NCBI GenBank assembly: GCA_033391075.1
Contig: JAWPMV010000001.1
Span: 7,812,001-7,876,000 of the forward strand
Source of the DNA: Bacteroidia bacterium
Lineage (GTDB): Bacteria > Bacteroidota > Bacteroidia > J057
Length of the DNA: 64,000 bases
Reading direction: 5' to 3'
The notes beneath the pieces are model-generated. The model was given only the letters and a program-made list of their open reading frames with translations, ran no database searches and was not told the origin of the DNA. Each line of letters opens with the position of its first letter. Position 1 is the first letter of the stretch. The translations under genes and the position numbers were made by a program. Shown here piece by piece: positions 10,021 through 51,875 of this stretch.

Positions 10021-10060
10021 CAAAAAGGCGCAAATGGTTGATTCCCATTTGCGCCTTTTG
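10021..10060. terminator. Bidirectional hairpin terminator between glyS and DUF6089 gene
   Basis: An almost perfect stem (AAAAGGCGCAAATGG with its complement CCATTTGCGCCTTTT) with a 5-7 nt loop. A-rich and T-rich flanks on both sides let it serve the two convergent genes. Confidence 0.85.
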
Positions 10061-10076
10061 CATATATAATTTTTAA

Positions 10077-37686: not shown

Positions 37687-38011
37687 TATTGTAGTGTTGT
37701 GGTGTTTTAGTGTTGTAGTAGGATTGATTATCCAAATTCAACTACAACACTAAAACACCACAACACTTCCCTTTAAAAACTCGAACACCAGAACACCCGC
37801 GCACTTCCCATTTTCCTTCTTCTTTCAAAATTTCCGAAAAATGGATGTGACCTAAGAAGAAAAGTCTGTCTAAAGTATTGAATAGCAAAAAAATAGTGAA
37901 ATATCTGACTGGATATTAGGGTGAGCAGGCTAATCGATAGGAAAAAAAAATATTTTTTGCTAAATAAAGCAGTCATCGGAAATTCGAACCTTTTAATATT
38001 TGCTTAGGACT
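37687..38011. other. Intergenic region with palindrome and AT-rich tract
   Basis: Holds the perfect palindrome at 37694-37766 and then an AT-rich stretch (about 37840-38000) that should contain the promoter of the DUF1508 gene. No clear consensus promoter or gene is seen. Confidence 0.5.
37694..37766. repeat. ACTACAACACT-type palindromic repeat, copy 2 (perfect 26-bp arms)
   Basis: Arms 37694-37719 and 37741-37766 (ACTACAACACTAAAACACCA...) are perfect 26-nt complements with a 21-nt loop. The right arm recurs at 32902-32927. The element directly follows the HD gene and may act as a transcript end, but it also has the form of a dispersed palindromic repeat. Confidence 0.85.
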
Positions 38012-38335
38012 ATGTTTGAACTTTATCAAAGCGAGAAAAACGACAAGTACTACTTTCGTCTCAAAGCCAAAAACGGGCAAGTTATTTTGACTAGCCAGGG
38101 CTACGCCAGTAAATCTGGTGCCAAGAATGGAATTGAATCTATAAGAAAGAATTCAGGAGACGATGATCAATTTGAAAGAAAAGTGGCTTCTAATGGGAAG
38201 CACCATTTCAATTTGACCGCCAAAAACGGTGAGATCATCGGATCTAGTCAGATGTACGCATCTAAAGACGGCATGAATAACGGGATCAAATCTGTTGCAG
38301 CAAATGCTCCCGGAGCAGAAGTGAGAGAGGTATAG
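38012..38335 (+). CDS. DUF1508 (YegP-like) tandem-repeat protein
   Basis: A 107-residue protein of two DUF1508 repeats (about 1-50 and 52-107), each with the pattern FxLKAKNGQVILTSQGYASKSGAKNGIESI. The family is small and widespread (E. coli YegP); structures show a compact alpha/beta fold, but the function is unsettled. The start is set at the ATG giving MFELYQSEKND, the usual family N-terminus; an in-frame TTG at 38000 would add four residues. A strong terminator follows at 38363-38394. Confidence 0.9.
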   Translation: MFELYQSEKNDKYYFRLKAKNGQVILTSQGYASKSGAKNGIESIRKNSGDDDQFERKVASNGKHHFNLTAKNGEIIGSSQMYASKDGMNNGIKSVAANAPGAEVREV

Positions 38336-38362
38336 TCCGACTCGCACACACAGCAAAATAAT

Positions 38363-38394
38363 AACCGACTTCTTTGGGAGTCGGTATTTTTTTT
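38363..38394 (+). terminator. Rho-independent terminator of the DUF1508 gene
   Basis: ACCGACT pairs with AGTCGGT around an 8-nt loop, followed by a run of eight T after one A. Confidence 0.9.
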
Positions 38395-38456
38395 GCTCTA
38401 TTTTTGCCTGGTTTTATACTAATTAGTTGTGTTAATGTAAAATTTGTGAAAATAAT

Positions 38457-38486
38457 TTGACTTTTTAATTGAAATACCTATCTTTG
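38457..38486 (+). promoter_or_regulatory. Consensus Bacteroidota promoter of the DUF805 gene
   Basis: TTG (38457-38459), a 19-nt spacer, TATCTTTG (38479-38486): a perfect match to TTG-N19-TAnnTTTG. The predicted start near 38493 gives a leader of about 130 nt before the ATG at 38622. Confidence 0.85.
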
Positions 38487-38508
38487 TACAGCACAATCAA
38501 TTCAAGCA

Positions 38509-38581
38509 ATGAAAACACAAAGAATCTCTGTATGATGATATTGCTTCCTGTTCGGAATTGATGGATTTGTACAGAGATTCT
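38509..38581 (+). promoter_or_regulatory. Structured leader with mini-ORF upstream of DUF805 gene
   Basis: AGAATCTCTGTA (38521-38532) and TACAGAGATTCT (38570-38581) are perfect 12-nt complements with a 37-nt loop. An ATG at 38509 opens an 8-codon frame (MKTQRISV, stop at 38533-38535) that runs through the left arm. A second tiny frame (MMILLPVRN) starts inside the loop region. Translation of the mini-ORF would open the stem, so an attenuation-like control is possible (inference). Confidence 0.5.
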
Positions 38582-38621
38582 CATTTAACCAACATCAACC
38601 AACCATAAAAGCACAAGACCC

Positions 38622-39032
38622 ATGAATTATTATTTAATGGCCTTCAAGCGCTACGCAGATTTTAGTGGCCGTTCAAGACGAAAAGAATACTGGTATTTCG
38701 TCCTCTTCAATTTCCTTATCTATATCCTTCTCTTTGCCGCAGATATGGCAATTATCAGCAATAGTTCCTCAGCAGGATTAGGCATTTTTAGTGGCATTTA
38801 TGCCCTGGCTACTCTTATTCCTTCTTTAGCTGTTGCAGTGAGAAGATTGCATGATATCGGGAGAAGTGGATGGAGCATTCTTTTTGGCCTGATTCCTTTG
38901 ATCGGAGCTATACTCTTGCTTATCTGGTATACCACAGATAGCCAGGTAGGTAGCAATGCCTATGGACTCAATCCCAAAGACATAGGGGAGGACCAACTGA
39001 TAGAACAAATTGGCGGAGCAAGGGCATATTGA
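38622..39032 (+). CDS. DUF805 family inner-membrane protein
   Basis: A 136-residue membrane protein of the DUF805 (YhaH/YhaI) family. It has the family opening (YADFSGRSRRKEYWYFVLFNF), about four hydrophobic helices, the loop RRLHDIGRSGW (about 74-84), and the tail SQVGSNAYGLNPK. Function is unknown in all species. It is driven by a perfect consensus promoter through a structured leader and followed by a clear terminator, so it is a separately regulated single gene. Confidence 0.92.
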   Translation: MNYYLMAFKRYADFSGRSRRKEYWYFVLFNFLIYILLFAADMAIISNSSSAGLGIFSGIYALATLIPSLAVAVRRLHDIGRSGWSILFGLIPLIGAILLLIWYTTDSQVGSNAYGLNPKDIGEDQLIEQIGGARAY

Positions 39033-39094
39033 CTGAGCGAAGTGTCTGGCTGTTGCCTTGGACGGAACAGTCAACACTTATTTTCAATGTATTT

Positions 39095-39128
39095 CATCCG
39101 GGTGAAAGCCCGGATGATTTTTTTTAGG
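39095..39128 (+). terminator. Rho-independent terminator of the DUF805 gene
   Basis: CATCCGGG and CCCGGATG form an 8-bp stem with a 6-nt loop, followed by A and a run of T. Confidence 0.9.
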
Positions 39129-39161
39129 GGCTTTCCTATCTTGCTATTGTAAAATTGACCT

Positions 39162-40313
39162 ATGCAAAATCAGAAAGCTCTCTTTAGCCTCGATCCGGAA
39201 GTCCATTACCTCAACTGTGCCTATATGTCTCCGATTATGAAATCGGTCGAACAAAAAGGAATAGAGGGATTGATTCGGAAAAGAAACCCCTATCACCTGG
39301 CCCCGGAAGACTTTTTTACTGAAGTGGCTGAAGCCAGGAACCTATTTGCTGAGATGATCAATTGTCGTCCCAGTCAGATTGCCCTTATTCCTTCTGCTTC
39401 CTATGGCTTAAGTGCTGCCATCTCCAATATTCCCGCTGAAAGGGGGAATCATGCCCTTACCCTGGATCAGGAATTCCCGAGTGATTTTTTTCCTCTACAA
39501 CGCTGGTGCGACAAATATGATAAAGAACTTAAATCCATTCGTATCGATGCTCCAGCTGGAAAGCAGGGAGAGGCATGGAATAAGACCATCCTTGAGAGCA
39601 TTAATGAAGATTCGGCCGTATTGGTCATGTCTTCTGTACATTGGATGAATGGGATTCGTTTTGATTTACAAGCGATAGGAGAGAAATGTAGGGCAAATAA
39701 TTGCCTGCTAATAGTTGATGGAACCCAATCTTTCGGAGCCTTGCCTATAGATGTGCAGGAATGCAAGATTGATGCCCTGGTCTGTGCCAGCTACAAATGC
39801 ATGATGGGGCCTTATTCTATTGGACTTGCTTATATGGGCGAAGCATTCAATGAGGGAATTCCTTTGGAAGAAAGCTGGATGAACCGAACCAATGCGATGA
39901 ACTTCCGGGATCTCACAGATTATGAGGAGCATTATACAGAAGATGCAGGCCGTTATAATGTAGGCGAATTCAGCAATTTTATTTTGGTTCCCATGCTCAT
40001 TGAAGCATTGAAACAATTGAAGGAATGGCGACCTGATCAGGTGCAAGCCTATTGCCGGGCACTCGTCCAAGCCCTGCTTGAGTATTGTGAAGGGATAGGG
40101 GTTCAGCTGGAGAAAGAGGAAAATCGCTCCGCGCATATTTTGGGATTGCAGCTTCCTGATTCCATTGATTCAGAAGAATTACTCAAACGCCTGAAAGCTC
40201 GAAAGATCATAGTATCTGTTAGAGGAAGCACCATTCGAGTTTCTCCCAGTGTCTATAACACTCCGGAAGATATTCAGGCACTCATAGACACCATCGAGTC
40301 TTGTCGTCAATAA
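39162..40313 (+). CDS. Class V aminotransferase-like PLP enzyme
   Basis: A 383-residue fold-type I PLP protein of aminotransferase class V, the group of cysteine desulfurases, kynureninase-like and isopenicillin-epimerase-like enzymes. Visible features: HYLNCAYMSP at the N-terminus, His160 in SSVHWMNG, the PLP-binding Asp186 in IVDGTQSFG, and the PLP lysine Lys212 in CASYKCMMGP. No cysteine-desulfurase active-site loop is recognisable, so an aminotransferase, lyase or epimerase role is more likely; the substrate is unknown. A TATCTTGC box at 39137-39144 lies 18 nt before the start but overlaps the upstream terminator region. Monocistronic. Confidence 0.85.
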   Translation: MQNQKALFSLDPEVHYLNCAYMSPIMKSVEQKGIEGLIRKRNPYHLAPEDFFTEVAEARNLFAEMINCRPSQIALIPSASYGLSAAISNIPAERGNHALTLDQEFPSDFFPLQRWCDKYDKELKSIRIDAPAGKQGEAWNKTILESINEDSAVLVMSSVHWMNGIRFDLQAIGEKCRANNCLLIVDGTQSFGALPIDVQECKIDALVCASYKCMMGPYSIGLAYMGEAFNEGIPLEESWMNRTNAMNFRDLTDYEEHYTEDAGRYNVGEFSNFILVPMLIEALKQLKEWRPDQVQAYCRALVQALLEYCEGIGVQLEKEENRSAHILGLQLPDSIDSEELLKRLKARKIIVSVRGSTIRVSPSVYNTPEDIQALIDTIESCRQ

Positions 40314-40336
40314 ACAGGCCTGCGAAAAAAGGAAAA

Positions 40337-40356
40337 GCGGTTTCGCCAGAAACCGC
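40337..40356 (-). terminator. Hairpin between convergent aminotransferase and CHAT genes
   Basis: GCGGTTTC and GAAACCGC form a perfect 8-bp stem with a 4-nt loop. On the minus strand it is followed by TTTTCCTTTTTT, so it may end the CHAT transcript about 190 nt after its stop. Confidence 0.6.
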
Positions 40357-40418
40357 CTAACATGAACAATTATATATGTTCTGCTTACTTATACATTGTT
40401 GAGGACAACAAAAGAAAG

Positions 40419-40441
40419 CCGATCCTCCTCAGGAGGATCGG
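40419..40441. repeat. 23-bp palindrome downstream of the CHAT gene
   Basis: CCGATCCTCCT and AGGAGGATCGG are exact complements around a single C. It could be an additional transcript-end hairpin or a protein-binding palindrome; no T-run follows on the plus strand. Confidence 0.5.
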
Positions 40442-40548
40442 GTCTTGCTAATTGCTGTATATGTACATGAGATTCTTTGCAAATTTTTTGGGCTGTGCAT
40501 GATCGTGTATGTTTTCTTTAATAAGACGCAAGCCCTCAACTTATCTCA

Positions 40549-43419
40549 TCAACTCAGCTTAATTTTTTTATTTCTTAGGCTAAATACCCAATAAAGGAGC
40601 ATCGCGGCCAATAAAAGTAGCAGCCACATGCCATAGGTTTTGAAAAAGGGATTCCAAACACTTATGTCCTGACCTGTCAAAACATAGGTTGACCAGAAAT
40701 AGGGATGGGTCATATCGGGACTTGCGGAAGCCAAAAATTCCAGTTTTGCCGTCTTTAAGGCTCTGGAAGGTTTTTGTCCTTCTTTCAAAAATCTATAGAA
40801 AGATTCCGATATGGGAGCAGCAGCACGACCATCAGCTTTCCAAAGACTGGTCATGATACTTTTTGCGCCTGCCATTCTAAAAGCTCTGGCCAAGCTCATG
40901 ACGCCTTCTCCTTTTTGAAGCTTTCCATAACCCGCTTCACAAGCAATAAGACTCACAATCCGGCTATCTAAAGAAAGAGAGTAAAGCTCATGCACATAGA
41001 GTTTCCCATCATCATCTTCCTGTTCTTTGCCAAAATCAAGATAGGCTTTTATCGGATCTTCTACATTTGCATTTCCGTGGACAGCCAGGTGAACGGCTTT
41101 GAAATTGTTGGCTTCGGACTTGAAGGTCTTTTCAGAAGCATCCTGATCCAGATAGGTTTTTCCTCCCAGCAATTTTCCAATTTCCTGAGCAGAAGCCTTA
41201 TTGTGTTTGAGCTGCAAAAGGCCTTCATAATTTGGGGCGAAAGCAGCCAGATCTTGTAGGATTGGACCCTGTCTGTCAGCTTCTTTTTCTATGAGGGAAG
41301 CAGCGTGCAGGTATTGGATATGTTGACTTTTGAGTAAATATGGGAGTTTCCTGTAGGCCTGTGCGGGAATGCGGGAGCTAAGTGTTTGCTCCGGGTAGCT
41401 ACTCAGCAAAACCTCAAATGGAACAAAGGCCAAAGGACCATCAGGAACGATATACCAACTATCATAGATGGCAGAATCGGGAAGGGGAAGCTTTAAAACC
41501 TGAAAGAGCTCATGTGCATTTTTACAAAAACCAAGTAATCCTTCCTGAGACATATCCGGTTTGCGGGTATGCGCAGCTGTTTGATCCAGGGCGAGCAAAA
41601 TTTCATCACTAAGAGGGATGCTTTCAATGGAAATATCCGTCACATTCATTTGGAATCGATAGGCCATATTCTCTCCCCAGAAATATTCGATAAGTAGGCT
41701 ACGTTCCGGTAAACTTTCTTTAATAAAAGCTGCATCGAGCCGCTTATCATTCAAGTTCTTTTTCCGGTAGCCCGGATATTTCCTGACGACTTCATCTGTC
41801 AATTCTTTCTGTTTAGCTTCGAGTTCCGCTATGAGTGTCGTCCATTTTCCTGCTTGTATAGAATCTTGTGCTGACTGTTGCTCAGTATTGGTCAGGCGAT
41901 TTTTATAATATTCGATGTCCGCTTGCAGTCCATCGAGTTGCTGCTGAACAGAATCTGGTAAAGCTTCAAAAGTAATGGCTCTGGATTCCAGAATTTCTTC
42001 GATCAGCAAACGAGATTTTATGGCTTCGGCAAATGAAAAAGCATCCCAAAGATAGCTTTGATCCCGGCTGAGCTTATATAATTCTGTGCTGATCTCTATT
42101 CCCAGTTCCACCAAAGAACGGGAGCCCTCGCTCAACTTCAACTTACTTTCCTCGCTTTCCTGAATCGCCTCAATTTCCGGGATCAGATCTATGCCCCTTT
42201 CGATATGTCTGTGTGCCAATTCAAGCAGAGATTGCTCCTGAGATGACTGGTAGAGGGTAAATAAACTGAAGGCCTTCAATTCCATCAGTTTGATCATATC
42301 CCGGGGAATCTTGATGGCTGTTTTATCCGGAAGGATTTTCCAATCACTACTATCCGGCAAATTTCTACTCAATACACTCACACTTTGTTGAAATGATCCT
42401 AGACTTTCCTCCCATAAATTTTGTGCTGCCTGAATTTCTCCTATCCGTTTATACCCTCTGGCAATATCGATCATCAAAGATTTTGCATTCTTCTGCTGCA
42501 GCCTGATTTTCTGAGCTTCTTTCAAATGAAAGAGGGCTTTTTCCGGATCAGCCGTTTTGAAGTACATTTCTCCCAGCAATTCTTCTCCCACTTGTTTGTA
42601 GGCATTCCCTGCACCTGTTTCGATGGAATTTCCTTTCTGGATAAAGAAAACACAGCTATCATATTTCCCCATGCCCAAATAGGAATTTGCTATCCCATAG
42701 TATGAGCGGGCAATTCCGAGAGGGCTGGCGAAACTCAGGCATTTGCGGAAAGCAGAAAGAGAGGACTGCCAGTTTTCTTCCCGGTTTTGTATCCATCCCA
42801 GGGCGAGGAAGAGGTTTTGGGCAGAACGATCTGAGATAGAAGCTTCGTTCATGAGAAGTGCTTCGGCTTTTTCATAAAATTCTATCGCTTTCAGGTAATC
42901 TCCACCTCTATCGTAGGTGGTAGCTATTTCATAAAGCGAGAGAAAAATAGCTTCGGGATTTCGCTCTTTTTTGTTTTGGTGAATGTCCAGGAGTTCCCGG
43001 TAGATTGCCAGGGTTTCCTTGAACTTTCCTTTCTCCCGTAGAAAAAAGGCCAGATTATAATAAGGATCCGTGTATTGGAGGTGATCTTTGTCTAGGCTTT
43101 TTTGGGTAACTTCTATTCCTCTTCGGGCATAGGCTTCTCCTTCTTCATAGTTTCCCAGCACCATGTGGATTTGACTTAGGGCATTATGGGAACCTGTATA
43201 GCCATTCATGAGCTCATAGTGTTTGAAGAACGGGATCATCTCTTCAAAATGGGCTATGGCTAATAGAGGCTTGCTACGCACCAATACAAAAGCAGTATCA
43301 TAGCATGAAATTACTGCATCCTTACTAAGGGTATCGCCATTGACTTGTGCTTTTGCGCCAAAGGGTAGTAGTAATGCCAGCAGGATTGCCCAGCTAGTAT
43401 GTGTAGTTTTCTTGACCAT
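40549..43419 (-). CDS. CHAT domain protease-like protein with TPR array and C-terminal anchor
   Basis: A 956-residue exported protein: signal peptide (1-24), tetratricopeptide repeats over about 35-430 (for example YYNLAFFLREKGKFKETLAIY), a helical linker with coiled coil (about 460-560), a CHAT domain (about 610-920) with the cysteine-peptidase dyad His781 (LAVHGNA) and Cys827 (LIACEAGYG), then one TM helix (about 933-950) and a basic tail (RNKKIKLS). CHAT is the caspase-like family that includes HetF-associated peptidases and separase relatives. The predicted topology puts TPRs and CHAT in the periplasm, anchored in the inner membrane. Three secreted paralogs and a divergent ECF sigma pair are neighbours. 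Protease activity is inferred from the dyad. Confidence 0.88.
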   Translation of the reverse strand: MVKKTTHTSWAILLALLLPFGAKAQVNGDTLSKDAVISCYDTAFVLVRSKPLLAIAHFEEMIPFFKHYELMNGYTGSHNALSQIHMVLGNYEEGEAYARRGIEVTQKSLDKDHLQYTDPYYNLAFFLREKGKFKETLAIYRELLDIHQNKKERNPEAIFLSLYEIATTYDRGGDYLKAIEFYEKAEALLMNEASISDRSAQNLFLALGWIQNREENWQSSLSAFRKCLSFASPLGIARSYYGIANSYLGMGKYDSCVFFIQKGNSIETGAGNAYKQVGEELLGEMYFKTADPEKALFHLKEAQKIRLQQKNAKSLMIDIARGYKRIGEIQAAQNLWEESLGSFQQSVSVLSRNLPDSSDWKILPDKTAIKIPRDMIKLMELKAFSLFTLYQSSQEQSLLELAHRHIERGIDLIPEIEAIQESEESKLKLSEGSRSLVELGIEISTELYKLSRDQSYLWDAFSFAEAIKSRLLIEEILESRAITFEALPDSVQQQLDGLQADIEYYKNRLTNTEQQSAQDSIQAGKWTTLIAELEAKQKELTDEVVRKYPGYRKKNLNDKRLDAAFIKESLPERSLLIEYFWGENMAYRFQMNVTDISIESIPLSDEILLALDQTAAHTRKPDMSQEGLLGFCKNAHELFQVLKLPLPDSAIYDSWYIVPDGPLAFVPFEVLLSSYPEQTLSSRIPAQAYRKLPYLLKSQHIQYLHAASLIEKEADRQGPILQDLAAFAPNYEGLLQLKHNKASAQEIGKLLGGKTYLDQDASEKTFKSEANNFKAVHLAVHGNANVEDPIKAYLDFGKEQEDDDGKLYVHELYSLSLDSRIVSLIACEAGYGKLQKGEGVMSLARAFRMAGAKSIMTSLWKADGRAAAPISESFYRFLKEGQKPSRALKTAKLEFLASASPDMTHPYFWSTYVLTGQDISVWNPFFKTYGMWLLLLLAAMLLYWVFSLRNKKIKLS

Positions 43420-43432
43420 GTTTATGCATATA

Positions 43433-43462
43433 AGCCCTTATTGAGAAATCTCAATAAGGGCT
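43433..43462 (-). terminator. Strong hairpin between secreted paralog 1 and the CHAT gene
   Basis: AGCCCTTATTGAGA and TCTCAATAAGGGCT are perfect 14-nt complements around two A. It lies in the 62-nt gap before the CHAT start and has only a weak T-tail, so it may lower read-through or stabilise the upstream mRNA. Confidence 0.6.
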
Positions 43463-43481
43463 GAAAATAAAGCTTTATCTC

Positions 43482-44369
43482 TTAGTATTTCACAATTTTC
43501 TTGTTGAATACTTCGCTTCCATTGCTCACGCGTATCAAATAAAATCCGGGACTGAGTGCTTTAGTATTTATAGAACCCAACCACTTATCTGCTCCTGTGA
43601 ATTTGCTTTGATACTCCAGCTTCAATTTTTCTCCATTCAAATTGTAGACTTCTACCGAAGGCTTGATTCCCTGATTTCCTGGAATGCTTAATTCCACATA
43701 GTCTGTGAAAGGATTGGGAGAGGCGTCAAAAGAATCCGATCGATCGATTCCCGTTCTGCTATGGCTAGCTCCTCCCTGGGATGCTGCACCTGGACTAGTA
43801 TTAGTACATAGTTCAACCGTATAACTTCCCCAGGCTTCTCTTTGAAATCCGTCCCAATGAGGCATAGGATTTGTGAAAATATCCCTTACGAAAAGCTCTA
43901 AATTTATCACCATGAGATTTGCTTGAGGATACCCCAAAGGGAGTCCTGTGCTAAAATTAAATGGGATTTCCAGTGTATAGGCATCTATTTGGTTCAGATC
44001 AGCCACTTGATAGGTAGCTGAATGCGTCAGGCCTCCGCTTACATAGGGATGGTCTATACTAACTTCTACTCGAATAGCTAGCAGATCTTCAATGGGATCA
44101 CTCGGTCTATAGGTAATTATTTCATTAAAAATTACCTGATTCGGCATTCCTTTAATGTATAGCACCGGTTGGCAGCCAACATTAGGATCTTTGGGGTTTT
44201 TGGGATTTCTGTCAAATTGCTGAGGAGAAGTGTGGGCCCCGTTCCCGGTTCCATGACCATTATCTGTAACGATGATTATCGTCTGAGGAGTTTGGGCATA
44301 GAGAGAATTGATCGAAAAGGACAAGAAGACTGCAAAAAAGCAGAGGGTAACATGTGTTATTGTTTTCAT
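43482..44369 (-). CDS. Secreted T9SS type A protein of unknown family (paralog 1)
   Basis: A 295-residue exported protein, signal peptide ending LYAQ (about 26). The mature protein opens with a motif shared by its two neighbours, TIIIVTDNGHGTGNG, then a region with CQPVLYIKG and FNEIITYRPSDPIEDLLAIRVEVSIDHP, and LEIPFNFS. The last 80 residues are a type A sorting domain (FDASPNPFTDYVELSIPGN..., VEVYNLNGEKL, LSPGFYLIRV). The core domain is not recognised; a beta-sandwich is likely from the strand pattern. It lies 62 nt before the CHAT gene and 157 nt after paralog 2, all on the minus strand. Confidence 0.72.
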   Translation of the reverse strand: MKTITHVTLCFFAVFLSFSINSLYAQTPQTIIIVTDNGHGTGNGAHTSPQQFDRNPKNPKDPNVGCQPVLYIKGMPNQVIFNEIITYRPSDPIEDLLAIRVEVSIDHPYVSGGLTHSATYQVADLNQIDAYTLEIPFNFSTGLPLGYPQANLMVINLELFVRDIFTNPMPHWDGFQREAWGSYTVELCTNTSPGAASQGGASHSRTGIDRSDSFDASPNPFTDYVELSIPGNQGIKPSVEVYNLNGEKLKLEYQSKFTGADKWLGSINTKALSPGFYLIRVSNGSEVFNKKIVKY

Positions 44370-44526
44370 GTCATGAGATTAAGTAGCGAACAAAATAAAA
44401 ATTCAAGTGTATTACAGCCCCTTTATCGTCAAAAGGCCTGCAATAAGCGTAAGCAGAAATTTAGCTTCCTTGTGCTTAATACGATAGGACGTATGAAAGC
44501 AAAAAATCTAAACAGAAAAATGAAAT

Positions 44527-45411
44527 TTATTTTTTCAGCAACTTGATTACTTCTGGATCATCGTCAGAAAGCAATTGTATGAGATACATGCCCGGGGGTA
44601 AATCTTGGGTAGAGAATGAGCCAATCCATTGACCGTCTCCCATAAACTTAAGGCTTGTTTGCATAGGAAGCTGACGGCCTTGCATATCCATAAGTTTGAT
44701 TTTTGGTTCTTTACTTTCCGGGGCAGTTATCCGCAATTCGAGGTAGTCCTGAAAGGGATTGGGGAAAGCCTGAAAGCTATCTGAAATATCTTGAGAAATA
44801 GAGCTTCTATGATTACCGGCTCCCGGACAAGCATGATGTTGGCCTTGTCTGCAAATCCGGGTGTTGTAGACACCTGCGGATTTAAATTCGAATGTACCAG
44901 ATGGGAGATTACTCAGGCCTGTGGGGCGAGTGGAGATTTCAATTTGAATTTGCATCCTTCTTCTAATTCTCCTTCTCCTGCGAAGTTCTACCCTAAAGCT
45001 GAGCGGGATTTCTATATACTCGGTATTCAAGCCTTTTACTACATTAAGATCCGTTCGGTTAAATACTTCGGTGTAGGTAAAACCTCTGGGAATATTTCGG
45101 TGCTGAATCTCTAGCTTTATCTCAATTTGAGAAATAGAAGATACAGGATCGGTTGGGGTATACTGGATAAGGTCATTAAAATCAAGCTGAAACCTCCTGC
45201 GCCTATCGGTAGGAATCAATTCCTGACAGGGAGGATTAGTCAAAGCTTCATCAAAAGGCTCAAGTTCATAATCTTCAAACATTTCCCCTTCATTTCCTCG
45301 CCCATTATCAGAAGCAATAATAATGGTACGGGGCATTTGGGCAAAGAGAAAGACGGGACTACAAAAGAGGAATAAAAAGAGAACTCTGAGATAGCTTTTT
45401 GATATCAACAT
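44527..45411 (-). CDS. Secreted T9SS type A protein of unknown family (paralog 2)
   Basis: A 294-residue exported protein, signal peptide ending LFAQ. It opens TIIIASDNGRGNEGE, followed by PPCQELIP, FQLDFNDLIQYTPTDPVSS, EIKLEIQHR and YIEIPLSF, all aligned with paralogs 1 and 3. An arginine-rich segment (RVELRRRRRIRRRMQI, about 148-163) is special to this copy. The C-terminus is a type A sorting domain (FQAFPNPFQDYLELRI, KLMDMQGRQLPMQ, LPPGMYLIQLL). Function is unknown. Middle gene of the tandem trio. Confidence 0.72.
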   Translation of the reverse strand: MLISKSYLRVLFLFLFCSPVFLFAQMPRTIIIASDNGRGNEGEMFEDYELEPFDEALTNPPCQELIPTDRRRRFQLDFNDLIQYTPTDPVSSISQIEIKLEIQHRNIPRGFTYTEVFNRTDLNVVKGLNTEYIEIPLSFRVELRRRRRIRRRMQIQIEISTRPTGLSNLPSGTFEFKSAGVYNTRICRQGQHHACPGAGNHRSSISQDISDSFQAFPNPFQDYLELRITAPESKEPKIKLMDMQGRQLPMQTSLKFMGDGQWIGSFSTQDLPPGMYLIQLLSDDDPEVIKLLKK

Positions 45412-45524
45412 CAGATACAGATTTATCAGGGGTTTCGAATAAAAAATACCTTAAAAGATAGCTTTTTTTACGCTTGTAAGCAGTTTTTTAGTCCGAACGC
45501 GCATTACTTCTGCATCAGAGGTCG

Positions 45525-45557
45525 AAAAAATCCACATACCCTTTCGGGCATGTGGAT
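45525..45557 (-). terminator. Terminator of secreted paralog 3
   Basis: On the minus strand ATCCACATGCCC, loop GAAA, GGGTATGTGGAT, then TTTTTT. One G-T wobble. It lies 20 nt after the stop codon, so paralog 3 can be expressed alone. Confidence 0.9.
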
Positions 45558-45576
45558 CGAGCTCATTGTGTATCGC

Positions 45577-46452
45577 TTATTCTATGACAAGTCTTTGGCT
45601 AAATGTCCTTTCCGAAGTTCTGACATGGAGCAAATAAATGCCGCTGGGAAGTTGTGCTGTAGGAACAGATGAAATCCAGGTATTATTTCCACTGTATTTA
45701 CTGGTTGGGGAAATAGATTGTGCTTTTCCGGATAGGTCGAAGAGAGTAATCTCGGGCATCTGATCCCCATCTGCAGGAATCTGAAGACTCAGGTAATCCT
45801 TTACAGGATTTGGAAATGCAAGGAACTCCATTTCTTGTGCTTCTTCGATCCCTTCCCGAAATCCAATGCCCGATTTTATGCTTTTCAAGCAAATTCTTGC
45901 AGGATAAAAGCCAAAGGATCGAAAATCAAAATTGGAGCCATCAACAGCAGGAGTCAAGCCATCGTCGAGTGTAGCGATCTCCAGATAGATATCGAGAGTC
46001 GATTCTATGAAATAGAAAGGAAGAATTTCTACCACAAGTTGTAAGGGAATCTCGAGGTATCCATTTGGGTTCACCACCAGGTCCGAAAGTCGGTAAACAT
46101 GCTCGGCATTATAAGGAACACTTAGCATAGGATCATCTATGCTGACTTTTACCCTTACATAATTTAAAGAGGAAATCGATGAACCTGGCGTATAATATAT
46201 GATATCATTCACCGTCAGGTCCAGGTTGCGACCGTTTCCATTTCGGCTTAGTGGCTGGCAGGGAACTTCAACTTCCAAATCGTCAAAGGGTTCCGCCTCG
46301 TAAACAAAGTTTACTTCTTCATCACCAGTACCATGTCCATTGTCAGACACAATAATAATGGTCATGGGTTGTTGCCCAAACACAGCAGAGCATGTACATC
46401 CTAGAATAATGAATGCAAATAGTAGTTGAAAGCAAGTCTTACAAAGATTCAT
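45577..46452 (-). CDS. Secreted T9SS type A protein of unknown family (paralog 3)
   Basis: Start set at the ATG giving MNLCKTCFQLLFAF, which yields a signal peptide of normal length ending VFGQ; an ATG 36 nt upstream (46488) would add MNFYCFLLNTLR. The mature protein opens TIIIVSDNGHGTGDEE, then VPCQPLSR, LDLTVNDIIYYTPGSSISS, VRVKVSIDDP and LEIPLQLVVE, matching its two downstream neighbours. The type A sorting domain is at the end (FLAFPNPVKDYLSLQIP, ITLFDLSGKAQ, LPSGIYLLHV). The family is not recognised. It is divergent from the ECF sigma gene, with 230 nt between them. Confidence 0.72.
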   Translation of the reverse strand: MNLCKTCFQLLFAFIILGCTCSAVFGQQPMTIIIVSDNGHGTGDEEVNFVYEAEPFDDLEVEVPCQPLSRNGNGRNLDLTVNDIIYYTPGSSISSLNYVRVKVSIDDPMLSVPYNAEHVYRLSDLVVNPNGYLEIPLQLVVEILPFYFIESTLDIYLEIATLDDGLTPAVDGSNFDFRSFGFYPARICLKSIKSGIGFREGIEEAQEMEFLAFPNPVKDYLSLQIPADGDQMPEITLFDLSGKAQSISPTSKYSGNNTWISSVPTAQLPSGIYLLHVRTSERTFSQRLVIE

Positions 46453-46682
46453 TCTTAAAGTATTAAGCAGAAAACAATAAAAGTTCATGAAAACAGAGTA
46501 GCAGTGAATTTTTTTTCCAAATTTCGAATAATGAGTAGCTTCGCATATTGGGAAAAGGAGGAAAACCCTATTGCTCCATTTTTCTCTATCAGACGCAAAG
46601 GGGGACTTTATCTCAACAGAAATTCAATTTTTTTTTCCATTTTTAATGTTGGATGAAATTTAAAACAGGCAAATAGCGGAAC

Positions 46683-47249
46683 ATGCTTCCATCGGATCAG
46701 GACATCATTGACGGTATCAGACAAGGGGGGACGGCCCGCCAAAGACTCGCATCCCAGATTTATAAACAATTTATGGGCTATGTCTATAAAGGTCAGCAAC
46801 GCTACAAGTTGAACCTGGAAGAGGCGCTGGATGCCTATGCAGATGCTATAACGGGAGTTTGCCGTCATATTGAAGCCGGGAAATTTCGAGGAGAAAGCAA
46901 GCTCTCTACTTATCTTTTTAAATCTTTTTCCAACAGATGTGTTGATAAACTCAGAAGGCGCGCGTCTAATGCAAATGTAGAATGGGAAGACCTGACACCG
47001 ACGATGCCGGACAAGGCTAAAACCATGATACAGGAGCTTGTCGTAAAAGAAGATACGCAAAGACTATTGTCCCTAATGGATGAATTGGGAGAAAACTGCA
47101 AAAAGATTCTCGTCGATTCTGAATATTACGGATTCAATATGGAAGAGATCGCAGAGCGTATTGGATTTAAAAATGCTGCCAGTGTATCCAGTATGAAATA
47201 CAGATGCCTGGATAAATTGAAGAAACTGATCGGCAAGCGGAATAGCTAA
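46683..47249 (+). CDS. ECF-type RNA polymerase sigma factor
   Basis: A 188-residue sigma-70 family protein. Region 2 is at about residues 26-95 (QIYKQFMGYVYKGQQRY, then YADAITGVCRHIEAGKFR and STYLFKSFSNRCVDKLRRR). Region 4 is at about 125-185 (LGENCKKILVDSEYYGFNMEEIAERIGF and a SVSSMKYRCLDKLKKL helix). It is followed after 22 nt by a one-TM regulator and is divergent from the three secreted paralogs and CHAT gene, the most obvious regulon (inference). The long, CHAT-associated subgroup of Bacteroidota sigma factors looks similar. Confidence 0.9.
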   Translation: MLPSDQDIIDGIRQGGTARQRLASQIYKQFMGYVYKGQQRYKLNLEEALDAYADAITGVCRHIEAGKFRGESKLSTYLFKSFSNRCVDKLRRRASNANVEWEDLTPTMPDKAKTMIQELVVKEDTQRLLSLMDELGENCKKILVDSEYYGFNMEEIAERIGFKNAASVSSMKYRCLDKLKKLIGKRNS

Positions 47250-47271
47250 GAGAAACACAGCAAAAGATATT

Positions 47272-48027
47272 ATGGCCAAAAAAGACATTTATACTCCTGA
47301 TCCTGAGCGTATACAATTGTATCTGTCTGGAAATATGTCAAAAGCCGATCAAGTGGCCTTTGAAAATGAGATAGATACGACTCCTCAACTGAGGGATGCT
47401 GTTCAGGAAGCTGCCCTTGCCAAATGGACCATACATGCCTATGCCAATCAGGAGGAGATGAAAGCACTGAATGAGCTCTACGAGGATAATGCGCAGAAAG
47501 CGAAGCTGATAAACTTGATGCATTATCGCTGGATGGCTGTAGCTGCGGCTATAGCACTTTTGCTGGTAGCTTACTTCATCTTTAAACCTGCTCCCGTCAA
47601 AAATATGGAGCAAATCATCGCTTCTTATTATGAGGTACCGGCTTCTCCTGATATCATGGCCATTGATACAGAAGAAGCTTTGAGAAAGGCAGATAAGGCT
47701 TATGGTGATCAGGACTGGCAAACAGCTATTGATGCCTATGAGCAGATTCATGAAGACTCTATTTCCAGTTTTCAGATTTCCCGTATAGCATTTTTTAAGG
47801 GGATCAGCCAAATGGAATTAGGGAAATGGGAACAGGCTGAAAATTCCTTATCAACTGCAAATCAACATCCAGAGCAAAGTCAATGGTATTTGGCTTTACT
47901 TGCTCTGAAAAAAGGAGATCGGGAGAAAGCCAAAGAACGTCTCTCCGCCATCAGTTCCAATGCTGATCATTACTTTGCTTCACAGGCAAATTCCTTATTG
48001 GAAGAGCTTGAGGCTCTGAAAGAATAA
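47272..48027 (+). CDS. Probable anti-sigma regulator with periplasmic TPR domain
   Basis: A 251-residue protein with a cytoplasmic helical N-terminus (ERIQLYLSGNMSKADQVAFE, about 13-32), which has the shape of an anti-sigma domain but lacks zinc-binding cysteines and histidines. One TM helix lies at about 84-104 (RWMAVAAAIALLLVAYFIF). The periplasmic part (about 130-251) contains tetratricopeptide-like repeats (ALRKADKAYGDQDWQTAIDAY and a MELGKWEQAENSL repeat). It is 22 nt after the ECF sigma gene. The periplasmic TPRs could sense, or be cleaved by, the CHAT-TPR protein encoded opposite (inference). A good terminator follows. Confidence 0.78.
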   Translation: MAKKDIYTPDPERIQLYLSGNMSKADQVAFENEIDTTPQLRDAVQEAALAKWTIHAYANQEEMKALNELYEDNAQKAKLINLMHYRWMAVAAAIALLLVAYFIFKPAPVKNMEQIIASYYEVPASPDIMAIDTEEALRKADKAYGDQDWQTAIDAYEQIHEDSISSFQISRIAFFKGISQMELGKWEQAENSLSTANQHPEQSQWYLALLALKKGDREKAKERLSAISSNADHYFASQANSLLEELEALKE

Positions 48028-48051
48028 TATCTCTAACATCTATTACATAGA

Positions 48052-48080
48052 AACCCGGCTTTTCAGTCGGGTTTTTTATT
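48052..48080 (+). terminator. Terminator of the ECF sigma/regulator operon
   Basis: AACCCG pairs with CGGGTT around a GC-containing loop, followed by TTTTTTATT, about 25 nt after the regulator stop codon. Confidence 0.85.
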
Positions 48081-48224
48081 GATATACCTGCCTGGCTTTT
48101 GGCTCTATCTATTTCTAAATAAGATGGAATTATCCCTCAGAACATAAACCTCCATTTTTACCCGGACTGAAAGGAAGCGAGAGGAAATTATTATCCTTTA
48201 CTTTGCTAAAGAAATTAAGGCTAA

Positions 48225-48722
48225 ATGAAGATCCAACTCAGAAAAATGACCGCTACAGACTGGCCCAGGGTAAAAGACATTTACCAAAAAGGCCTGGATT
48301 TGGGCTATGCTTCTTTTGAAACGGAGGCGCCTGCCTGGGAAAAATGGGATGCAACACATCTGACTGATTGTCGATATGTAGCAGAAACTTCCGAGGGGAT
48401 ATTGGGTTGGATTGCGTTGAGTAAGGTATCAGCCCGTGAAGTTTATAAAGGAGTTGCTGAGGTCAGTATCTATATCGATCCGGCGCAATCGGGTAGGGGA
48501 TTAGGAAAGAAGTTGATGGAGAAAGTGATAGAAGAAAGTGAAAAGCGAGGCTTCTGGACCTTGCAATCTGGTATCTTCCCTCAGAATACGGCCAGCATTC
48601 ACCTACACGAAAAAATGGGCTTTAGAAAAATCGGCTACAGAGAAAAAGTCGCCAAAAGAGTGGGCATCTGGCAAGACAATGTACTTATGGAAAGGAGGAG
48701 TAAGAAAGTGGGTTTGGATTAA
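48225..48722 (+). CDS. GNAT acetyltransferase of the phosphinothricin/arsinothricin type
   Basis: A 165-residue GNAT enzyme using acetyl-CoA. The acetyl-CoA-binding motif A is QSGRGLGKKL (about 88-97). The sequence around GYASFETEAPAWEKWD and the C-terminal HEKMGFRKIGYREKVAKRVGIWQDNVLMER fit the phosphinothricin N-acetyltransferase family, which also includes arsinothricin acetyltransferases (ArsN1). It ends 4 nt into the convergent next gene. An arsR operon lies about 1.5 kb away, but not adjacent. The substrate is inferred from family only. Confidence 0.85.
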   Translation: MKIQLRKMTATDWPRVKDIYQKGLDLGYASFETEAPAWEKWDATHLTDCRYVAETSEGILGWIALSKVSAREVYKGVAEVSIYIDPAQSGRGLGKKLMEKVIEESEKRGFWTLQSGIFPQNTASIHLHEKMGFRKIGYREKVAKRVGIWQDNVLMERRSKKVGLD

Positions 48723-49231
48723 GGCTTACTTCTTAAATCCTTGGTCAGGTATAAAACGAGCCCATCATCTACTTCTATTTTTGTATGGTAAACGGCTGGC
48801 TTTCCATGATAAAACAGTCCCTTTCCATCCGGAACATAGCCTCGCCGGACATACATGACCTGAGCTGCTCCATAATCCGGAGGCATTCCCACACCAATTC
48901 CCGCAAAATCTGATATGAGACTCATTCGCCTTTCTGCCTCATCCATCATTGCACTCGCGATTCCTTTCCGATGAAATTTTTGTAGAACATTCAAATCAAC
49001 GATCTCCGGGATTCCTTGCGATTTGAAAAATGTATAACCTGAAATCCATTGGATGGTCAAATAGCCCGCAAATTCTCCCTCCCATTCTGCTAGAATGATA
49101 TCTCTTTCGCCCTTTTCTTGAAATTGGAAATATCGTTCGTATTGGCTGGCTGGTTTTTTCCATCCTTGTGCGTTAAAGGCTTGTTCGATAGGCAATGCAT
49201 CCCCTTCGCTAAGGGCTCTCAAATGGATCAT
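48719..49231 (-). CDS. GNAT family N-acetyltransferase
   Basis: A 170-residue GNAT acetyltransferase. Motif A is FHRKGIASAMM (about 86-96), preceded by the strand EIVDLNVL. The C-terminal part, GIGVGMPPDYGAAQVMYVRRGYVPDG, is the usual AAQxxYxxxGF acceptor-side motif. The substrate cannot be named. Its 3' end overlaps the neighbouring acetyltransferase gene by 4 nt in convergent orientation. The next gene is 98 nt upstream. Confidence 0.82.
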   Translation of the reverse strand: MIHLRALSEGDALPIEQAFNAQGWKKPASQYERYFQFQEKGERDIILAEWEGEFAGYLTIQWISGYTFFKSQGIPEIVDLNVLQKFHRKGIASAMMDEAERRMSLISDFAGIGVGMPPDYGAAQVMYVRRGYVPDGKGLFYHGKPAVYHTKIEVDDGLVLYLTKDLRSKP

Positions 49232-49329
49232 GGAAATAGGTATTGGGTCGAAAGAAAAAATCGACAGAGTTTGTATCTAAGGGAAGAGGTTTTTGATTCC
49301 TCCATTGCTTCTTCTTTGTTTTTATATCA

Positions 49330-50091
49330 TCAGGCAAGGTTCAAATTTCCCCTGAAAATCCATTCCCGAGGCCTTGGTCCGCCCAGTCGATCCTCGATAT
49401 GACTGATAAGTGCAAGCAGGCTTTTCTCTTCATCTCTTCTACAGCTAGCCTCAATGGCTTCTGCCAGGATTCGTCCAAATTCCGGATCATCTTTGCTTAG
49501 GAAAGGGATAAGTCGCTTTTTCTTTTGGGGAAATTGTTGTTTTAGCTGAAAATGGAGCTTAATGCAATCCTCAATGATTCCTGCAGCAACGAGCCGAGCT
49601 CCCAGCATATCCCCATTATCCAGACAGTCCCAATAGTCTTTTCGCTGATCGTCCAAGCCATACTTGGCCAATTCTCTTTGCACATCTGTGATGGGTTCCG
49701 CCTTTTTCTTCAGTCTTGCCCTTGCCTCATTCACCAGTTCGGCTATGACGGGATCTCGCTCCAGGCGACATTCACCATGAGCCATGATATGAGCAGTATG
49801 AGGTTTATCTCCTTCTTGTCTAAAATAGGCACGTATTTGCTCGGGGGGATTGTGGAAATACTCAATCTCGACTCCTCCAATCCAGGTATTGCCTCTTTCC
49901 CTAAAGTCAATCCCTTCCTTTAGTATCACATATACATCTATGTCAGAATGCTTGTCCAGTCTACCGTGTGCATAAGATCCACTGGCGATGATCCCGATCA
50001 CTTCCGGATTTTCACTTACTTGATCTATGTAGGTTTTGAGGGCTTTGTCGAAAATTTGTTTTCGCTCTCCCTCCCGACTAGTGTGCTGCAT
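49330..50091 (-). CDS. Nucleotidyltransferase-fold protein
   Basis: A 253-residue protein with an N-terminal nucleotidyltransferase domain: GSYAHGRLDKHSDIDVYV (about 38-55) supplies the GS motif and the metal-binding Asp50 and Asp52. The C-terminal part is helical (LVNEARARLKKK..., DCLDNGDMLGARLVAAGIIEDCIKLHFQ), as in aminoglycoside or small-molecule nucleotidyltransferases and HEPN-like helical partners. Whether it modifies a drug, an RNA or a protein is unknown. Monocistronic and divergent from arsR. Confidence 0.75.
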   Translation of the reverse strand: MQHTSREGERKQIFDKALKTYIDQVSENPEVIGIIASGSYAHGRLDKHSDIDVYVILKEGIDFRERGNTWIGGVEIEYFHNPPEQIRAYFRQEGDKPHTAHIMAHGECRLERDPVIAELVNEARARLKKKAEPITDVQRELAKYGLDDQRKDYWDCLDNGDMLGARLVAAGIIEDCIKLHFQLKQQFPQKKKRLIPFLSKDDPEFGRILAEAIEASCRRDEEKSLLALISHIEDRLGGPRPREWIFRGNLNLA

Positions 50092-50158
50092 TTGTCTGTC
50101 TGTTTGCGTGTAATTTATACTCCTGAACGATAGGAAAGGTTGAGAAAATGAAAAAAAA

Positions 50159-50194
50159 TTGAAACTTAATTCTATTTAATCGTATATTTACGAT
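50159..50194 (+). promoter_or_regulatory. arsR promoter with overlapping ArsR-type operator
   Basis: TTG (50159-50161), a 21-nt spacer, then TATATTTA (50183-50190). Across the -7 box lies the inverted repeat ATCGTA-TATT-TACGAT (50179-50194), the form of ArsR operators. The ATG is at 50210, so a bound repressor would block RNA polymerase. Confidence 0.75.
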
Positions 50195-50209
50195 ATATAA
50201 TGAATTGCA

Positions 50210-50548
50210 ATGGCGATCAATAAAAAACATAGTTTCGAAAGTAGGCAGATTGAGTTGGCAGATTTCGCAAAAGCATTGGCGCATCCTGCCCGCATAGCCA
50301 TCATTGAAGTATTGATAAAAAGGCAGAGTTGTATATGCGGAGAGATTGTAGAAGAACTGCCTTTATCCCAATCAACGGTTTCCCAGCACCTGAAAGAATT
50401 GAAGAAAGTCGGTTTGATTACTGGCGAGATTGAAGGGGTACGGACCTGTTATTGCCTGGACCTGACGGTTTTTGATCAGTTCATTGGACTCTTCCAACAC
50501 CTCAAAGGAGAGATCGATACCTATAAAGAGAAAATTAATTGTTGTTAA
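50210..50548 (+). CDS. arsR: ArsR family metalloregulatory repressor
   Basis: A 112-residue winged-helix repressor. The HTH is in the segment LPLSQSTVSQHLKELKKVG. Metal or arsenite-binding thiols are likely Cys41 and Cys43 (SCICGEI) in the DNA-recognition region; further cysteines are at 80, 82 and the terminal 111-112. It is first of an arsR-DUF6428-arsC operon and should bind the inverted repeat that overlaps its own promoter, releasing it when As(III) or a similar thiophilic ion binds. Gene name is by family and context. Confidence 0.88.
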   Translation: MAINKKHSFESRQIELADFAKALAHPARIAIIEVLIKRQSCICGEIVEELPLSQSTVSQHLKELKKVGLITGEIEGVRTCYCLDLTVFDQFIGLFQHLKGEIDTYKEKINCC

Positions 50549-50594
50549 ATTTTGCGGCGAATTATATTGCCGCAGCGAAATCATATATACACCT
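50549..50594 (+). other. Intra-operon hairpin between arsR and the DUF6428 gene
   Basis: TGCGGC (50553-50558) and GCCGCA (50569-50574) pair around a 10-nt AT-rich loop, with ATTT/AAAT extending the stem imperfectly. No T-run follows; it may set mRNA stability between the two genes. Confidence 0.4.
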
Positions 50595-51131
50595 ATGAAT
50601 TGGCAAAGTTTTAAAGATAGCCTATCTGCTCATCCGGAAGCTCCTCTTCAGTTTGAATATGCTTCGGAGCAGTATGTTAGTCCTGCTTATCACATTACCG
50701 AAATCAAGCAGGCCCAAATCACCTCTGTAGATTGTGGAGGGAAAATGAATGCGTGGAACGAAGTTGTCGTACAACTTTGGGTTCCCGAAGGCAAGGCTGA
50801 AGAAGTACCTATGTCTTCAGCTAAGGCACTCAAGATCATTGATCTGGTAGAGAAAAGTTTACAAATCCACCCGGATGCACCGGTGAAGATTGAATATGGG
50901 GACGCTGCTTTCCCCACACGCCAAATGTTGATAGAAGAAATAGGAACCCAGGATGGAGAAGTACGGGTAAGCCTGGTTGCTGATAAAACTCAGTGCAAAG
51001 CCAATGATAGAGGAGGGGAGTGCGGTCCTAAGAAAACAGAAAAGCCTAAAGTCGTATTACAAAGCCTGGGGAGTAGCCTGAGTGTCGCCAATGAAGGCGA
51101 TTGCTGCACTCCCGAGTCGGGCTGTTGTTAA
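50595..51131 (+). CDS. DUF6428 family protein of arsenic operons
   Basis: A 178-residue cytoplasmic protein. The start is set at ATG giving MNWQSFKDSLSAHP; an upstream open frame to 50472 overlaps arsR and is not real. DUF6428 proteins regularly sit between arsR and an arsenate-reductase-like gene in Bacteroidota; their function is unknown. The sequence has CKANDRGGECG and a cysteine-rich end (GDCCTPESGCC), which suggests soft-metal or As(III) binding (inference). The next gene starts 9 nt after its stop. Confidence 0.82.
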   Translation: MNWQSFKDSLSAHPEAPLQFEYASEQYVSPAYHITEIKQAQITSVDCGGKMNAWNEVVVQLWVPEGKAEEVPMSSAKALKIIDLVEKSLQIHPDAPVKIEYGDAAFPTRQMLIEEIGTQDGEVRVSLVADKTQCKANDRGGECGPKKTEKPKVVLQSLGSSLSVANEGDCCTPESGCC

Positions 51132-51140
51132 TTTATTCCT

Positions 51141-51770: not shown

Positions 51771-51850
51771 TTTTAGTTTCCCCGTAAGACCCCTTGTACC
51801 CACCTCTCATCTGCGCGGCTTTTTGTTTCAAAAAGCTCATGTCTAACGCG

Positions 51851-51858
51851 TACCTTTG
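51851..51858 (+). promoter_or_regulatory. -7 box of the MATE exporter gene
   Basis: TACCTTTG followed by CGCACC, a good Bacteroidota -7 motif 17 nt before the ATG at 51876. The nearest TTG (51823-51825) is 25 nt upstream, slightly too far. It suggests that the exporter is transcribed apart from the ars genes. Confidence 0.55.
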
Positions 51859-51875
51859 CGCACCTATACACATTT

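What the first reader, a model, noticed from the sequence alone, without database searches (positions are those of the whole stretch)
40549..48027. CHAT-TPR protease-like anchor, three T9SS paralogs and a divergent ECF sigma/TPR-regulator pair
Seen: a periplasm-facing CHAT protein (His781/Cys827 dyad, C-terminal TM) next to three tandem secreted paralogs on the minus strand, and divergent to them an ECF sigma gene followed 22 nt later by a one-TM protein with periplasmic TPRs. Known: CHAT domains are caspase-like peptidases that often recognise partners through TPRs; ECF factors are usually held by membrane anti-sigma proteins that are released by cleavage. Inference: the CHAT protein could cleave the TPR regulator, or respond to the secreted paralogs, giving a surface-to-sigma signalling route. 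I know of no described system with this composition.
Basis: partly seen in the sequence, partly recalled or inferred. Interest (0 to 1): 0.72.

Follow-up and report, generated by a model that had tools for sequence, protein, structure and literature searches.

The report
Caspase-like protease paired with sigma switch
This locus is one copy of a recurring bacterial gene set in which a gene-switch protein, its probable membrane-bound brake and a caspase-like protease keep turning up together, which suggests, without proof so far, that the protease releases the switch.

Summary
In detail: TPR-CHAT protein (His781/Cys827, C-terminal TM), three T9SS-tailed paralogs, and a divergent ECF sigma with a one-TM TPR protein 22 nt downstream. 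Sigma pair and CHAT are a linked unit: in this genome nine such pairs lie beside ten of twelve anchored CHATs, and none of 24 other CHATs has one. In 14 other Bacteroidota genomes of a phylum draw, 20 of 27 TPR-protein hits lie within 10 kb of such a CHAT; 13 of the 14 have it, against 1 of 18 examined genomes without the TPR protein. The dyad is kept in 99 of 101 long CHATs. Sigma, TPR protein and CHAT co-diversify within genomes. The three paralogs are local, but some exported protein just upstream of CHAT is common; its kind varies, and a few loci have none. Best reading: regulated proteolysis, a TPR anti-sigma cut by a periplasmic TPR-CHAT peptidase. Cleavage is inferred. Precedents: Csx29 cutting Csx30 (type III-E CRISPR), CalpL/CalpT/CalpS, and ECF54, whose context holds CHAT and subtilase genes. 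New variant of a known kind; I found no description of this membrane form in the open-access library searched.

The parts
40549..43419 (-). TPR-CHAT peptidase-like protein, 956 aa: signal-like N-terminus, TPRs, CHAT domain 636-917 with His781/Cys827, C-terminal TM near residue 930, basic tail
43482..44369 (-). secreted T9SS-tailed paralog P1
44527..45411 (-). secreted T9SS-tailed paralog P2
45577..46488 (-). secreted T9SS-tailed paralog P3 (three-row model: beta-rich, low confidence)
46489..46682 (.). 194-bp divergent intergenic region; no shared promoter motif found
46683..47249 (+). ECF sigma factor, 188 aa
47272..48027 (+). probable anti-sigma factor, 251 aa: N-terminal domain predicted cytosolic (1-86), one TM (about 87-105), C-terminal TPRs predicted periplasmic

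Best explanation
The locus is one copy of a Bacteroidota gene module whose core is an ECF sigma factor, a single-pass probable anti-sigma factor with a TPR tail in the periplasm, and a membrane-anchored TPR-CHAT peptidase whose CHAT domain is also predicted periplasmic; a variable exported protein is usually attached. Shown by sequence: the linkage and its recurrence, the kept catalytic dyad, the predicted shared topology and the co-diversification of the three core proteins. Inferred: the anti-sigma's N-terminal domain holds the sigma at the membrane; the CHAT peptidase recognises the TPR tail and, when triggered by an envelope or surface signal (perhaps through its own TPRs or the exported partner), cuts the periplasmic part (a 'site-1' cut); an intramembrane protease then frees the sigma, which transcribes the cargo/CHAT operon. 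I put about 0.9 on the three core genes working as one unit, 0.8 on the TPR protein being an anti-sigma, and 0.5 on CHAT being the protease that cuts it.
For: Own genome: the window TPR protein alone finds six places at E<=0.001, itself included, all beside a CHAT of this family; its sigma's seven best places (itself included) of 17 likewise. The 9-row profile adds three and finds no other strong place (next 53 bits); its rows were chosen beside CHAT, so '9 of 9' is not an independent count. 10 of 12 anchored CHATs have an ECF gene within 10 kb against 1 of 24 others, and no sigma/TPR pair was seen in the stretches round those 24. Phylum draw: 20 of 27 TPR-protein hits in 14 other genomes lie within 10 kb of CHAT (hand comparison of the tables); CHAT at E<=1e-40 in 13 of 14. 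Of 16 genomes without the TPR protein given to the same search, 0 have it. Crocinitomix locus L032, fetched with the CHAT protein alone, has CHAT-CHAT-TPR protein-sigma. Dyad kept in 74 of 75 and 25 of 26. Net charge before the TM exceeds that after it in 36 of 37 TPR proteins. zf-HC2 matches 15 of 34 N-terminal domains at E<=1, the next family 2 of 34. Sigma and TPR-protein frames overlap or lie <30 nt apart in 66 of 80 pairs. Co-diversification of 57 modules under within-genome shuffling: sigma-CHAT r 0.42 against null 0.15, p 0.0002; periplasmic tail-CHAT 0.46 against 0.26, p 0.0005.
Against: No cleavage evidence. 21 of 80 sigma/TPR pairs in the fetched loci have no CHAT in the stretch. Anchored CHATs without a pair exist: L037 and L045 here, and 35 of 63 from relatives (many fetched because the tables showed no pair). 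G016 has several CHATs and no strong TPR protein, and G034, without the TPR protein at 1e-15, has one CHAT; I had not put G034 or G039 among the 16 controls (G034 yes, G039 no), so the fair count is 1 of 18. The 16 were all of the window's class, the 14 not. The window's own N-terminal domain has no Pfam match; the solved anti-sigma 3hug was first with the 9-row profile (E 0.046) but ninth with 34 rows (E 0.57). The juxtamembrane R-[GSAND] is as common without CHAT as with it (17 of 21 against 42 of 59) and missing in the window copy. No shared promoter. The periplasmic tail tracks sigma as well as it tracks CHAT (0.43 and 0.42 at equal column numbers), and block duplication alone would give co-diversification.
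Confidence: 0.52

Rival explanations
1. CHAT is an output, not the trigger: the sigma, released by some other signal, transcribes the cargo/CHAT operon, and the CHAT peptidase processes the co-encoded exported protein (maturation, quality control or activation of an effector).
For: CHAT lies in the divergent or downstream same-strand gene run of the sigma pair in 24 of 56 rows, 20 of them with other genes between. In the second set the gene just upstream of CHAT looks exported in 16 of 23 cases by eye. Cargo differs from copy to copy: subtilase, lipase, FGE-like, T9SS-tailed proteins. Pairs without CHAT exist. I raised this rival from 0.30 to 0.33, and lowered the best reading from 0.55 to 0.52, after one search showed exported neighbours to be commoner than I had first written.
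Against: L043, L169 and L181 have sigma, TPR protein and CHAT in a row with no gene between, so an exported gene is not needed for the linkage; CHAT distances track those of the TPR protein.
Confidence: 0.33
2. The TPR-CHAT protein is a docking sensor whose peptidase is not the point: it binds the TPR tail and moves it without cutting.
For: Both partners carry TPRs; one copy, L045, lacks both catalytic residues.
Against: 99 of 101 long copies keep the His-Cys dyad, and L045 is one of the two anchored copies of this genome with no sigma pair.
Confidence: 0.1
3. Proximity is incidental: both families are merely abundant in large Bacteroidota genomes.
For: This genome has 74 ECF-type genes above cut-off and 36 CHAT matches.
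Against: 0 of 20,000 random placements reached the observed 9 of 12; linkage recurs in other families.
Confidence: 0.01

Closest known systems
Type III-E CRISPR Craspase: Csx29 (TPR-CHAT), Csx30, CASP-sigma (PMC10028731; passages seen)
   Same: A TPR-CHAT peptidase with His-Cys dyad, a sigma inhibitor and an ECF sigma encoded together; the peptidase cuts the inhibitor. After 8rot_B, the CHAT profile's best solved sequences are chains named 'CHAT domain protein' and Csx29.
   Different: Csx29 acts with Cas7-11 and RNA. Here CHAT and the TPR protein are predicted membrane proteins facing the periplasm, there is no direct-repeat array in 36000-52000, and the Csx29 model scores 20.9 bits against a cut-off of 300.
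CalpL/CalpT/CalpS (PMC11417357; passages seen)
   Same: Dedicated protease, anti-sigma and ECF sigma as a three-part switch.
   Different: Lon-type protease with SAVED domain, triggered by a cyclic nucleotide in type III CRISPR.
ECF54, example from Geodermatophilus (PMC8999054; passages seen)
   Same: CHAT and subtilase proteins recorded in the genetic context, and control by proteolysis proposed.
   Different: Described there as without an anti-sigma; the present modules have a candidate. Subtilase is seen here in L041 and L151 only, among the genes scanned.
RseA/DegS and RsiW regulated proteolysis (mentioned in PMC10028731; details recalled)
   Same: Single-pass anti-sigma with cytosolic N-terminal domain, ECF sigma, envelope-side first cut proposed here.
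   Different: The first protease would be a CHAT peptidase encoded beside the pair; the periplasmic part is TPR.
T9SS type A cargo (TIGR04183)
   Same: All three paralogs carry the sorting domain over cut-off.
   Different: Outside the tail region their N-terminal part has no Pfam match over a cut-off; in 40 genomes it was found here, once each in G002 and G010 (both in the profile), and weakly in G032 (21 bits).

Membership tests
CHAT peptidases (PF12770) | Pfam CHAT domain over gathering score | tested here: met
   144.9 bits against 24
CHAT peptidases (PF12770) | His-Cys catalytic dyad | tested here: met
   H781, C827; 11 of 12 in this genome, 74 of 75, 25 of 26
CHAT peptidases (PF12770) | peptidase activity | not testable with these tools
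   needs biochemistry
Type III-E Craspase (Csx29) | NCBIfam Csx29 model over cut-off | tested here: not met
   20.9 bits against 300
Type III-E Craspase (Csx29) | CRISPR array and cas genes nearby | tested here: not met
   no direct repeats of 20 or more within 200 bases in 36000-52000; no Cas match among the 9 proteins scanned; other neighbours not scanned
ECF sigma factors | sigma region 2 and TIGR02937 | tested here: met
   TIGR02937 73.9 bits against 42.9; region 2 27.2 against 24; region 4 18.4, below 24.1
membrane anti-sigma factors | gene directly after the sigma | tested here: met
   22 nt here; <30 nt or overlapping in 66 of 80 pairs, starts being first in-frame start codons
membrane anti-sigma factors | one TM, N-terminus in the cytosol | tested here: met
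   one TM at 87; charge bias in 36 of 37; prediction only
membrane anti-sigma factors | anti-sigma domain | tested here: inconclusive
   zf-HC2 in 15 of 34 N-terminal domains at E<=1, best 3.4e-4, none for the window copy; 3hug E 0.046, then 0.57
membrane anti-sigma factors | binds and inhibits the sigma | not testable with these tools
   needs biochemistry
ECF54 | CHAT, subtilase and carboxypeptidase in context | tested here: inconclusive
   CHAT yes; subtilase only in L041 and L151 among genes scanned; none in the window locus
ECF54 | no anti-sigma factor | tested here: not met
   an anti-sigma candidate follows the sigma
ECF54 | sigma sequence belongs to the group | not testable with these tools
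   no group models held; Casas-Pastor 2021 not held
T9SS type A cargo | C-terminal sorting domain | tested here: met
   39.5, 32.8, 41.6 bits against 23

The most novel reading that the evidence does not exclude
A periplasmic caspase-like signalling network: Bacteroidota genomes carry from one to at least fourteen private sigma/anti-sigma/TPR-CHAT circuits (fourteen linked trios counted in G010), each protease releasing its own sigma when its own exported partner or envelope patch is disturbed, and the CRISPR Craspase cassette (Csx29-Csx30-sigma) is a cytosolic relative recruited from such cellular modules.
Probability: 0.25. Interest if true: 0.87.

Novelty: new variant of a known kind. Interest (0 to 1): 0.7.

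Why it matters
If the inferred cut is real, caspase-like peptidases control transcription across the envelope as an everyday bacterial signalling mode, not only inside CRISPR immunity, and in many parallel copies per genome. It would give a use to many membrane-anchored CHAT genes of Bacteroidota, a cellular setting to compare with Csx29/Csx30, and a ready set of protease-substrate pairs with natural specificity differences inside one genome.

Tried and rejected
Shared promoter in the divergent regions: 55 upstream regions gave only A/T-rich words slightly above shuffles, and four close sigmas share no gapped word in three or more. A conserved cleavage site: juxtamembrane R-[GSAND] is not enriched with CHAT (42 of 59 against 17 of 21) and is absent here. 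Structure of the TPR protein: single sequence, pLDDT 68; the 50 Foldseek rows shown are mostly TPR and helical-repeat proteins, none of the matches at E<=0.001. Structure of paralog P3: pLDDT 64, three rows; best rows are immunoglobulin-like folds with TM about 0.2, not informative. PDB profile searches with whole proteins were dominated by TPR proteins. Defence-system membership: PADLOC gives only a generic TPR model. Literature: searches in the open-access library (listings seen) showed no account of this membrane module; the ECF classification paper is not held and its supplement was not seen, so absence from it is not established. Incidental proximity. Rows dropped: for the 34-row N-terminal set I printed 41 of the 81 available references (every second pair, plus the window) and left out seven by eye for unusual length; for co-diversification L167 and CHATs over 9 kb away were left out.
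Full report
What is there. The CHAT protein has TPRs, a CHAT domain over Pfam's cut-off, the His781/Cys827 dyad, a signal-like start and a C-terminal TM followed by a basic tail. The sigma is an ECF-type factor. The next gene, 22 nt on, has a TM at about residue 87 and C-terminal TPRs. The three minus-strand paralogs carry T9SS sorting domains.

The module repeats in the same genome. The genome (9.49 Mb, 5 contigs) has 36 CHAT matches. The window TPR protein finds six places at E<=0.001 (itself included), all beside a long CHAT; the window sigma finds 17, the best seven of them (itself included) beside a long CHAT. I fetched 40 regions around CHAT and sigma hits and annotated them. Twelve long CHAT proteins (406 bits or more with a profile of their own, the others 21 bits or less) share the TPR-CHAT-TM design; nine sigma/TPR-protein pairs lie beside ten of them, two CHATs sharing one pair (L035/L036; the further one is 8.5 kb from the sigma). 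L037 and L045 have none; L045 is also the only one of the twelve without the catalytic His and Cys. No pair was seen in the stretches around the other 24 CHATs. With 74 ECF-type genes above cut-off as background, 9 of 12 long CHATs have one within 8 kb against 1 of 24 others, Fisher p 2e-5, and no random placement in 20,000 matched it.

Relatives. In 40 genomes (this one included) the TPR-protein profile gave 88 hits of 70 bits or more outside this genome; 35 had a CHAT hit within 10 kb in the tables. I fetched 80 regions, chosen because they held one or both hits, so proportions in them are not unbiased. Over all fetched loci, with L032 and the later set, there are 80 distinct sigma/TPR pairs, 59 with CHAT in the same stretch. 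Against the reading: 35 of 63 long CHATs from relatives have no pair in the stretch, three in a row in L135 have none, and G016 and G034 have CHATs without a strong TPR protein. The three G016 CHATs fetched lack the C-terminal TM even by a relaxed cut. By that cut, of 101 long CHATs 59 have TM and pair, 36 TM only, 5 neither, 1 (L172) pair only.

A less biased test. In a phylum-wide draw of 148 genomes, 15 (this one included) have the TPR protein at 1e-15. I gave 30 genomes to the CHAT search: the 14 others with it and 16 of the 133 without, all 16 from the window's class. CHAT at E<=1e-40 was in 13 of 14 and 0 of 16; G113 and G136 matched only in the TPR part. Two more draw members without the TPR protein had been searched: G034 has a CHAT, G039 has not; so 1 of 18. 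Comparing tables by hand, 20 of 27 TPR-protein hits lie within 10 kb of CHAT. In the 20 fetched loci the sigma was recognised beside the TPR protein in 19 (not L162), and L181 holds a trio that the profile search missed. A Crocinitomix contig found with the CHAT protein alone has two CHATs convergent with a TPR-protein/sigma pair.

Core and cargo. L043, L169 and L181 have sigma, TPR protein and CHAT in a row with nothing between. Elsewhere extra genes differ: subtilase (L041, L151), FGE-like plus T9SS-tailed (L034, L095), lipase (L038), S74 (L033), T9SS-tailed proteins of no family. In the second set the gene just upstream of CHAT looks exported (signal- or lipoprotein-like start, by eye) in 16 of 23 cases. 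The window's paralogs occur in 40 genomes only here, once each in G002 and G010 between sigma and CHAT (both were in the profile), with a weak hit in G032. So sigma, TPR protein and CHAT are the core, an exported partner of changing kind is common, and the paralogs are this locus's version of it.

Is the TPR protein an anti-sigma? It follows the sigma within 30 nt or overlaps it in 66 of 80 pairs. Charge bias puts its N-terminus in the cytosol in 36 of 37. zf-HC2 (an anti-sigma zinc-finger family; that meaning is recalled) matches 15 of 34 N-terminal domains at E<=1, best 3.4e-4, the next family 2 of 34, but not the window's own. A 9-row profile put 3hug_B first at E 0.046 (that this is the RslA anti-sigma of a SigL complex is recalled); a 34-row profile put it ninth at 0.57.

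Is CHAT the protease of the switch? For: dyad in 99 of 101 (the exceptions are L045 and the broken L167), CHAT domain predicted on the periplasmic side (C-terminal TM in 64 of 75 by the strict cut, signal-like start in 67 of 75), and co-diversification. In 57 modules sigma-CHAT distances correlate at 0.42 against 0.15 when modules are shuffled only within genomes (p 0.0002); periplasmic tail-CHAT 0.46 against 0.26 (p 0.0005); cytosolic part-CHAT 0.31 against 0.12 (p 0.0002). At equal column numbers the tail tracks CHAT (0.42, sd 0.04) more than the cytosolic part does (0.31), but it also tracks sigma more (0.43 against 0.32), so it may simply carry more signal. Block duplication would give the same pattern. 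Against: no cleavage site could be named, no promoter tie.

Known relatives. In type III-E CRISPR the TPR-CHAT protease Csx29 cuts Csx30, which inhibits an ECF sigma (PMC10028731, passages). CalpL cuts the anti-sigma CalpT (PMC11417357, passages). A review says that control by proteolysis without an anti-sigma was proposed for ECF54 because carboxypeptidase, subtilase and CHAT proteins lie in its context (PMC8999054, passages). The CHAT domain's nearest solved sequences are 8rot_B (4.4e-8) and chains named CHAT domain protein or Csx29. The present module fails the Csx29 tests and differs from ECF54 by its anti-sigma candidate. I file it as a new variant of protease-controlled ECF signalling: it would work like Csx29/Csx30/sigma, in the envelope, but is not a member.

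Noticed in passing
L167 (G153:C31:1-19000), 7580-10896: CHAT gene split: its C-terminal part (250 aa, +) is inverted relative to the rest (855 aa, -), next to a sigma/TPR pair; possibly an inversion.
   Followed up: no
L146 9118-15989: Sigma/TPR pair divergent to a shorter CHAT protein (599 aa) and an nSTAND1 ATPase (1126 aa), a different kind of CHAT neighbour.
   Followed up: partly
L045 8152-11040: Anchored CHAT-like protein that lacks both catalytic residues and has no sigma pair.
   Followed up: partly
L135 4859-15356: Three tandem long CHAT genes with no sigma pair in the fetched stretch.
   Followed up: no
L074 9139-12360 approx.: Two sigma/TPR-protein pairs in tandem without CHAT in the stretch.
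   Followed up: no
L037 9165-12431: Orphan anchored CHAT of this genome, dyad intact, nearest ECF-type gene 170 kb away.
   Followed up: no
L130, L133, L143 (G016): CHAT proteins that end just after the CHAT domain, without the C-terminal TM, in a genome with no strong TPR anti-sigma.
   Followed up: partly
window 50210-51770: ArsR-like regulator followed by an arsenate-reductase-like gene, by eye; looks like an ordinary arsenic cluster, not tested.
   Followed up: no
TPR-protein family just after the TM (window 47590-47660 approx.): Partly conserved periplasmic linker of the form LfAe-F-pyP...RG between TM and TPRs over 80 pairs (R in 64%, G in 59% of the rows with a residue there); meaning unknown.
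   Followed up: partly
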